From Aquabacterium sp. OR-4 (lineage in GTDB: Bacteria; Pseudomonadota; Gammaproteobacteria; Burkholderiales; Burkholderiaceae_C), in contig NZ_JAOCQD020000004.1 in NCBI RefSeq assembly GCF_025290835.2, positions 372,001 through 436,000 on the forward strand: a DNA stretch of 64,000 nt, in the 5' to 3' direction. Position 1 is the stretch's first letter, and every line of letters begins with the position of its first letter. The position numbers and the translations under genes are program-made. The notes beneath the pieces were generated by a model. That model was not told the origin of the DNA. It made no database searches and worked only from the letters and a program-made list of their open reading frames with translations. Below, piece by piece: positions 8,380-9,458 of the stretch.

Positions 8380-8493
8380 CCCACCCCACCCCACTCTGGC
8401 TCTGGCTCTGGCTCTGGCTCTGGCTCTGGCTCTGGCTCTGGCTCTGGCTCTGCTCGCTGTGCTCGCGCACATCAGCGACGCACGGCGCACGGC
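8380..8493. repeat. Left arm of a perfect 114-bp inverted repeat, with (CTCTGG)9
   Basis: Every base of 8380-8493 matches the reverse complement of 9345-9458. Each arm contains exactly nine CTCTGG units plus about 45 bp of unique sequence (CTCGCTGTGCTCGCGCACAT and onward). The first mismatches are at 8379 and 8494. The arms bracket an 851-bp segment holding the recombinase C-terminal half. Confidence 0.95.
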
Positions 8494-8530
8494 GCACAGC
8501 GCACAGCGCCGGCCCGCCTCGAAGTGGCCG

Positions 8531-9379
8531 CTAAACCACAGCAGCAAACCCCTCGGCTGGCCGGCGCCGCAGCGCCACCAGGCCCGGGCTGCGCAAGGCT
8601 GCGGCGGTCTGGGCGTCGTGCGTGGCCACCGCCACCGCACAGTCGGCCAGCGCCCGCACCAGCAGCGCCCGCAGCCGCGCGGCACTCAGCGGTGCATCGG
8701 TGCCCAGGCAGGTGATCAGCGGCCTGGCCGCCGGCCCTGGCGCAGGCGCAGGCGCCACACGCCCTGCCCCCGCTGACGGCTGATCGCCCGCATGCTCGGC
8801 CTGACCCACGGCCTGAATCCCAGCCTGCGCCGTCGCCGCAACCGCTTCAGCCCGGGTTTCAAGCCCGCTGCCAGCCGGCACAGCGGCCGGCGCGCCGGGC
8901 TGCTCGCGGGCCGCCAGATAGTCGGCCAGGCGGGTGGCCACATCGGCCGGCAGCACCACGGCCCGGGCGCCATGCACACGCCCTGCCGCGCCGGGGCCGT
9001 GCACCTGCAGCACGCATGCGGCAACGGGTGAGGCAACGGCGGCGGCAGTGGCTGCGGCGATGGCTGCGGCAATGGGTGTGCCGGCGTCCAGCAGGGGCAG
9101 CGTGCTGCCCGGGGCCTGCGCCGGTCGTCGCGGTGCCGGCGTGGCACGCGCGCCAGTCTGCGCTGCCGGCCCGTCCGGCCACACCAGCCAGTCCGCACGC
9201 GCGGCGGCCAGTTCGGCCACGCGCAGGCCCTGCCCCAGCAGCAAGGCCGCCACGGCCCGCAGGCGTGCGCCGGCCAATCCCGGCTGCGTCTCGAGCCAAT
9301 CGAAGAACTGCTGCCGGGCGGGCCCGGGCAGCGCCGGTGGTGCGGCCGTGCGCCGTGCGTCGCTGATGTGCGCGAGCAC
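8531..9379 (-). pseudogene. Tyrosine recombinase/integrase, C-terminal half, inverted and degenerate
   Basis: The minus-strand frame beginning at GTG 9379 contains FFDWLETQ, then GQGLRVAELAAARADWLV, which matches box I of tyrosine recombinases with its catalytic Arg, and a hairpin-like segment (VLQVHGPGAAGRV) before VVLPADVATRLADYL. The hairpin Lys, the HxxR box and the C-terminal Tyr cannot be found before the stop at 8531, and Ala-rich stretches interrupt the domain. It is therefore the catalytic half of the gene starting at 6820, on the wrong strand and probably inactive. It lies inside the segment bounded by the 114-bp inverted repeat. Alternatively it is a small Ala-rich protein of its own, but the box I match and position argue against that. 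Confidence 0.72.
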
Positions 9380-9458
9380 AGCGAGCAGAGCCAGAGCCAG
9401 AGCCAGAGCCAGAGCCAGAGCCAGAGCCAGAGCCAGAGCCAGAGTGGGGTGGGGTGGG
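9345..9458. repeat. Right arm of the perfect 114-bp inverted repeat
   Basis: Reverse complement of 8380-8493 with no mismatch, including the same nine repeat units (here GAGCCA phase). Confidence 0.95.

What the first reader, a model, noticed from the sequence alone, without database searches (positions are those of the whole stretch)
8380..9458. Recombinase gene split by an inverted 851-bp segment between perfect 114-bp inverted repeats
The N-terminal half of a tyrosine recombinase reads on the plus strand into 8380-8493. The box I half (GQGLRVAEL) reads on the minus strand out of 9345-9458, and the two arms are exact reverse complements with the same nine CTCTGG units. This is what a flip of 8494-9344 within one gene would leave. 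It could be an invertible switch, a one-off inactivating inversion, or an assembly error at a repeat. Flipping it back still leaves the halves one base out of phase, and the HxxR box and Tyr are not seen, so the gene looks inactivated in either state.
Basis: partly seen in the sequence, partly recalled or inferred. Interest (0 to 1): 0.75.

Follow-up and report, generated by a model that had tools for sequence, protein, structure and literature searches.

The report
Decayed recombinase gene with inverted tail
A DNA-recombining enzyme gene beside a replicon's copying and partition genes had already lost its cutting end, and its remaining last part was then flipped around between two perfect inverted copies of a 114-base stretch; it is most likely a recent accident in a decaying gene.

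Summary
Exact 114-bp inverted repeats (8380-8493 / 9345-9458) enclose 851 bp. The N part of a DUF3701-type tyrosine recombinase reads into one arm; the C part reads from the other on the opposite strand, one base out of frame. Among 58 comparison loci the longest exact inverted repeat within 3 kb is 28 bp. Of 13 distinct related parAB loci none has an inverted C part and 12 have one open frame, so a flip inside one gene is the best reading.

One inference needs correcting: the missing HxxR box and tyrosine are not a result of the flip. The two nearest homologues found (P0001, P0002; 67-69% identical) are contiguous predicted proteins ending at the same place. The catalytic end was lost first. 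The inverted segment is the remaining C domain plus 37 bp. Its frame is the best of three in 17 of 18 codon windows (above zero in 9), and it has not diverged faster than in relatives, so the flip looks recent.

Related loci carry a 9-6-9 core site upstream of the gene; here it is degenerate. A reversible switch or an assembly misorientation is not excluded.

The parts
6613..6635 (+). Degenerate counterpart of the 9-6-9 core site found upstream of related genes (5-nt spacer, altered arms); recognised mainly by its position
   Evidence: 5 mismatches with a 5-nt spacer, against 0-3 mismatches with a 6-nt spacer in 11 of 13 distinct related loci. Five mismatches alone is not rare: 12 of 204 shuffled loci reach 5 or fewer (with a 6-nt spacer)
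6696..6709 (+). Counterpart of a DNA motif (TGACAAGCACTTGC) seen by eye downstream of the core site in related loci; role unknown
   Evidence: 2 mismatches; at that level the window has 2 matches with 0.47 expected, and 9 of 100 shuffles have at least 2
6820..8493 (+). N part of the recombinase gene from the likely ATG to the inner end of the left arm; the open frame runs on into the inverted segment to 8715
   Evidence: this frame scores best, and not below zero, in the 10 codon windows scanned from 7900 to 8394
7276..7533 (+). DUF3701 (PF12482) domain
   Evidence: E 2.3e-19
7879..8151 (+). SAM-like core-binding domain (PF02899)
   Evidence: E 8.1e-06
8380..8493 (+). Left arm of the exact inverted repeat, with the CTCTGG array 8394-8452
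8494..9344 (-). Inverted segment: the gene's C domain plus 37 bp beyond its stop
8531..9379 (-). C part of the recombinase: truncated catalytic domain, box I GQGLRVAEL at 9209-9235, VALRR near the end, then stop
   Evidence: its frame is best of three in 17 of 18 codon windows, above zero in 9
9345..9458 (-). Right arm of the exact inverted repeat
9615..10955 (-). parB-like gene (ParB_N and SopB-HTH matches just below Pfam's cut-offs)
   Evidence: synteny
10957..12177 (-). parA
   Evidence: 52 related loci
13064..14731 (+). Rep_3-type replication initiator gene

Best explanation
This is the tyrosine-recombinase gene of a rep-parA-parB-recombinase module found in many Burkholderiales genomes. 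Shown by sequence: in the sub-lineage of this gene the catalytic end (His of HxxR, box III His, Tyr) is gone, the upstream core site is degenerate, and the remaining C domain lies inverted between exact 114-bp repeats, one in the linker between domains and one just beyond the stop codon. Inferred: the module once resolved replicon multimers. That function was lost first. The linker repeat then existed in two inverted copies, and recombination or replication slippage between them, not the module's own enzyme, flipped the C domain. In the present orientation the gene can give only a DUF3701 plus core-binding fragment with a foreign tail, and the C part is probably silent, as its first start codon lacks an obvious ribosome-binding site. 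The event is probably recent. Nothing here shows that the cell uses it as a switch.
For: Exact repeat and its rarity. Single unbroken orthologues in the same synteny. Truncation shared with P0001 and P0002; these three form a group with SH-aLRT 99 in a quick tree. Codon signal clear for the N frame and weaker for the C frame (best in 17 of 18 windows, above zero in 9). C part not accelerated: identity to P0009 is 56/139 for the window, 53/139 for P0001, 59/139 for P0002. Core site in 11 of 13 distinct related loci, degenerate here, and no match above control level in this genome. The arms hold no core-like site at up to 6 mismatches with spacers of 5 to 7, so repeat homology rather than the module's site is the likely substrate.
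Against: Unaccelerated divergence of the C part also fits a part still in use. Identical array length in both arms fits repeated exchange as well as one recent event. No reads and no second strain were available. P0001 and P0002 were seen as proteins only, on contigs of 3.9 and 5.7 kb, so their neighbourhood is unknown. The role in multimer resolution rests on synteny, core-site geometry and general knowledge; no assay was seen.
Confidence: 0.66

Rival explanations
1. Assembly misorientation: both arms exist, but the 851-bp segment lies the other way round in most cells, and the assembler chose the wrong path through the repeat.
For: The arms are exact over 114 bp, about the length where short-read assembly can err; in the other orientation the parts would lie in the normal order; the C part is not accelerated. 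The source and read type of the assembly are unknown.
Against: Seven contigs for 6.63 Mb suggest reads or pairs that span 114 bp. The frame offset would remain, and the second arm itself needs a real duplication.
Confidence: 0.17
2. Reversible intragenic inversion kept as a phase switch that joins or removes the C domain of a non-catalytic DNA-binding protein.
For: The segment matches the C domain almost exactly, from linker to 37 bp past the stop; both arms have identical array lengths; the C part is not accelerated; the shortened protein form is preserved in P0001 and P0002.
Against: The halves are out of frame in either orientation; none of 58 comparison loci has an exact inverted repeat over 28 bp within 3 kb; no recombinase for the arms is evident; terminal repeats of site-specific invertible segments are described as typically 10-20 nt (PMC5903667, passages).
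Confidence: 0.12
3. Not one gene split by inversion but an old recombinase fragment plus an unrelated minus-strand gene or noise.
For: The C part has no Pfam match, and a database search with it alone found nothing at E 0.001.
Against: The C part aligns to P0001 and P0002 over about 250 residues (E 2e-17 and 4e-21), with box I and the same ending.
Confidence: 0.03

Closest known systems
TnpR subgroup of simple tyrosine recombinases (DUF3701 plus core-binding plus catalytic domain; Smyshlyaev et al. 2021, PMC8138268, two passages seen)
   Same: DUF3701 and the core-binding domain in the same order; truncated remains of the catalytic domain
   Different: No His of HxxR, no box III His, no Tyr; beside parAB-rep; C domain inverted
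Self-encoded dimer-resolution recombinases of low-copy plasmids, and use of XerCD on large replicons (PMC11724359, abstract and passages seen)
   Same: Recombinase gene beside partition and initiator genes; related loci have a 9-6-9 core site whose geometry resembles XerCD sites (that resemblance recalled)
   Different: In this genome neither module's recombinase keeps the full catalytic set, and no clear core site was found; use of XerCD instead was not shown (one dif-like pattern, no match)
Invertible DNA segments (invertons; PMC5903667 passages seen; PMC11892184 listing and abstract start only)
   Same: Unique segment between inverted repeats
   Different: Repeats are 114 bp instead of about 10-20; inside a gene; no evidence of both states; no cognate recombinase

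Membership tests
TnpR/DUF3701 tyrosine recombinase (active) | DUF3701 domain | tested here: met
   PF12482 E 2.3e-19
TnpR/DUF3701 tyrosine recombinase (active) | Core-binding SAM-like domain | tested here: met
   PF02899 E 8.1e-06
TnpR/DUF3701 tyrosine recombinase (active) | Catalytic R, H-x-x-R, H and Tyr | tested here: not met
   Only box I Arg and a VALRR stretch remain; no Tyr (same ending in P0001 and P0002). So it is a relative by descent, not an active member
Self-encoded multimer-resolution module | Recombinase beside rep-parAB | tested here: met
Self-encoded multimer-resolution module | Own core recombination site | tested here: not met
   Degenerate at 6613-6635; in the genome two places at 3 mismatches against one for the reversed control
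Self-encoded multimer-resolution module | Resolves multimers | not testable with these tools
   Needs an assay
Invertible DNA segment (inverton) | Inverted repeats enclosing a unique segment | tested here: met
Invertible DNA segment (inverton) | Short recombinase-recognised repeats | tested here: not met
   114-bp exact homology; no site like that of this recombinase group in the arms
Invertible DNA segment (inverton) | Both orientations in one population | not testable with these tools
   No reads available

The most novel reading that the evidence does not exclude
A lineage of partition-linked recombinases has been repurposed as non-catalytic DNA-binding proteins (P0001, P0002 and this gene), and here homologous exchange between 114-bp arms reversibly adds or removes the C domain, giving a recombinase-independent intragenic switch beside replication and partition genes.
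Probability: 0.1. Interest if true: 0.65.

Novelty: new variant of a known kind. Interest (0 to 1): 0.42.

Why it matters
It shows a replicon-maintenance recombinase losing its chemistry, its site and then its gene order, while close relatives keep the apparently non-catalytic protein as an open frame. That asks what such proteins do beside parAB. The related loci also point to a candidate recombination site for a little-studied recombinase group, which can be tested directly.

Tried and rejected
Two naturally convergent genes: rejected (0 of 13 distinct related loci). Mobile repeat as the source of the arms: no second arm copy in the genome (40 of 1109 candidates scored), no exact match of one 29-nt arm stretch in viral contigs, and in plasmids six records match, the five listed with 4-5% of the query, all inside the inverted segment (low-complexity filter on). 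Recombinase-driven inversion at a core site: no core-like site in the arms. C part as an independent gene: first start is GTG 9379, with no purine-rich stretch upstream by eye. Co-loss of site and catalytic residues over 44 genes plus the window: Fisher p 0.0004 (strict six letters) and 0.006 (R, H, R, Y), but only 7 independent pairs on supported branches and about 1-2 in which both traits differ, too few to test, so it is only a lead; the site criteria were set after seeing the nearest loci. Use of XerCD instead: one dif-like pattern gave no match anywhere in the genome, so the test is uninformative. N part against plasmids: 1455 records match, all under 60% identity, none with 80% of the query in one place. 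Structure of P0001 from 13 sequences: mean pLDDT 66.7, pTM 0.33; best PDB matches are Cre-type, E 0.002, none at 0.001 or below: weak support only. Papers: one search found one paper with DUF3701; the listings (often the first 8-10 of more) show nothing on such a split gene, and one search found no paper.

Full report
Observation. Exact inverted arms of 114 bp lie at 8380-8493 and 9345-9458 with 851 bp between, and both carry nine CTCTGG units. Similarity continues outward for about 25 bp with mismatches and a length difference; as good a match was seen in 5 of 2000 random placements in the region, and for the inner flanks in 43 of 2000. In 58 comparison loci (50 of 52, 8 of 9) the longest exact inverted repeat within 3 kb was 28 bp, median 20. 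No second copy of an arm was found in the held 6.63-Mb genome, where 40 of 1109 candidates were scored.

What the gene is. The plus-strand part (likely ATG at 6820) has DUF3701 and a SAM-like core-binding domain. The minus-strand part has no Pfam match, but aligns to the C-terminal part of P0001 and P0002, whose N-terminal part aligns to the plus-strand part. Next to it lie parB-like, parA and Rep_3 genes. A ParA search brought in 52 loci, and genome searches added others. Fourteen loci chosen for a closer recombinase were examined for order; L033 and L103 have the same matches and are counted once, so 13 are distinct, one being a second module in this genome (L097). In each the recombinase gene converges on parB; a rep match was also seen in all but L100 and L101. 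In 12 of 13 the gene is one open frame from the N domain through the tyrosine region; L104 (genome G006, also L011) stops after the box I region, with a C remnant on the same strand. None has an inverted C part. More distant loci differ: in several the gene runs in the same direction as parAB.

The missing catalytic end is older than the flip. Of the 120 listed homologues of the N part (224 passed the threshold, 7991 candidates scored), the two nearest, P0001 and P0002, are contiguous proteins and end as the window's C part does, with VALRR where others have HWLRH and no further catalytic residues. In the 120-row alignment 107 have His and 116 Arg in the HxxR columns and 110 have Tyr; 15 rows depart in box I Arg, HxxR His or Arg, or Tyr, and some of these are short or shifted proteins such as P0037, P0059, P0083, P0088 and P0095. 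In a quick tree of 84 rows (window, 75 of the 120 proteins, 8 genome loci) the window groups with P0001 and P0002 (SH-aLRT 99). The wider 10-row group also holds P0008, P0065, P0113, P0103 and L097, which have lost one or more residues, and P0009/L098, which keeps R, H, R, H and Tyr. P0008 is a long branch, so its place is unsure. Catalytic loss is therefore common in this lineage and not damage done by the inversion.

Timing. With a codon model from five window genes, the N frame is best and not below zero in the 10 windows from 7900 to 8394. On the minus strand the C frame is best of three in 17 of 18 windows from 9385 to 8531, but above zero in only 9, so its coding signal is weaker. Inside the arms no frame scores above zero. 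Over 369 shared N columns the window is 74% identical to P0001, and P0001 is 84% identical to P0002; over 139 shared C columns the figures are 53% and 70%; against P0009 the C columns give 40% (window), 38% (P0001) and 42% (P0002). The C part has not run ahead, so either the flip is recent or the part is still constrained.

A lost core site. Upstream of related genes lies an inverted 9-6-9 sequence, consensus CCTTGATAA-N6-TTATCAAGG. At up to 3 mismatches it occurs in 11 of the 13 distinct loci and is absent at up to 4 in L045 and L097. In 204 shuffled loci none reached 4 mismatches or fewer and 12 reached 5; the consensus came from these same loci. The window's version at 6613-6635 has 5 mismatches and a 5-nt spacer, so it is recognised mainly by its position. 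In the whole genome only two places match the 8-6-8 core at 3 mismatches, against one for the reversed control pattern. With a looser criterion, 25 of 44 recombinase genes found in 58 loci have a site within 700 bp upstream, compared with 25 of 832 tiles of 700 bp over the same loci, true sites included. Seven genes with the full residue set lack one by this criterion, and L016, L098 and L104 depart from the strict residue set yet have one. Loss of site and loss of residues go together in a plain count (p 0.0004), but there are too few independent tree pairs to test this.

Mechanism. Shown: the repeat, the inverted C domain, the frame offset, the older catalytic loss, the degenerate site. Inferred: the arms arose by an inverted duplication whose direction is unknown, and exchange between them by homologous recombination or slippage flipped the segment. 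The gene's own enzyme is an unlikely agent, since it lacks its chemistry and the arms contain no core-like site. [quoted passage not shown] A replicon that outgrew its own recombinase would fit the decay seen here; the contig with the window is at least 619 kb long and that of the second module 848 kb, but a dif-like pattern gave no match, so this remains a suggestion.

Verdict. A real, unusual rearrangement in an already non-catalytic relative of a known recombinase group, most likely a recent accident. The switch reading is possible but unsupported by any second state. The shared truncation in relatives and the candidate core site are the parts worth following.

Noticed in passing
Upstream of recombinase genes in L026, L027, L033, L038, L098-L102, L104, L105: Conserved 9-6-9 inverted core site (CCTTGATAA-N6-TTATCAAGG), candidate recombination site of the parAB-linked DUF3701 recombinases; variants in Azohydromonas loci L017, L019-L021
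   Followed up: partly
L026, L027, L033, L038, L098, L099, L101, L102, L104, L105; window 6696-6709: DNA motif TGACAAGCACTTGC (with 0-3 changes, by eye) downstream of the core site and before the likely start codon; role unknown
   Followed up: partly
L097 (G000:C3:806000-822000): Second rep-parA-parB-recombinase module in the same genome; its recombinase keeps Tyr but has Ile in place of the HxxR His, and only half a core site is seen upstream
   Followed up: partly
L024, L032, L034, L040, L046 (Pseudacidovorax); L057 (Variovorax): parAB-linked recombinases in the same direction as parAB that have lost several catalytic residues and lack the core site by the criteria used
   Followed up: partly
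window 9764-9787 and 10295-10318: Two near-identical palindromes (GGGGGTTGGAC-W-GTCCAACCCCCT) inside the parB-like coding sequence; 0 expected by chance for their 17-nt core in the window; possible partition site or inserted repeat
   Followed up: partly
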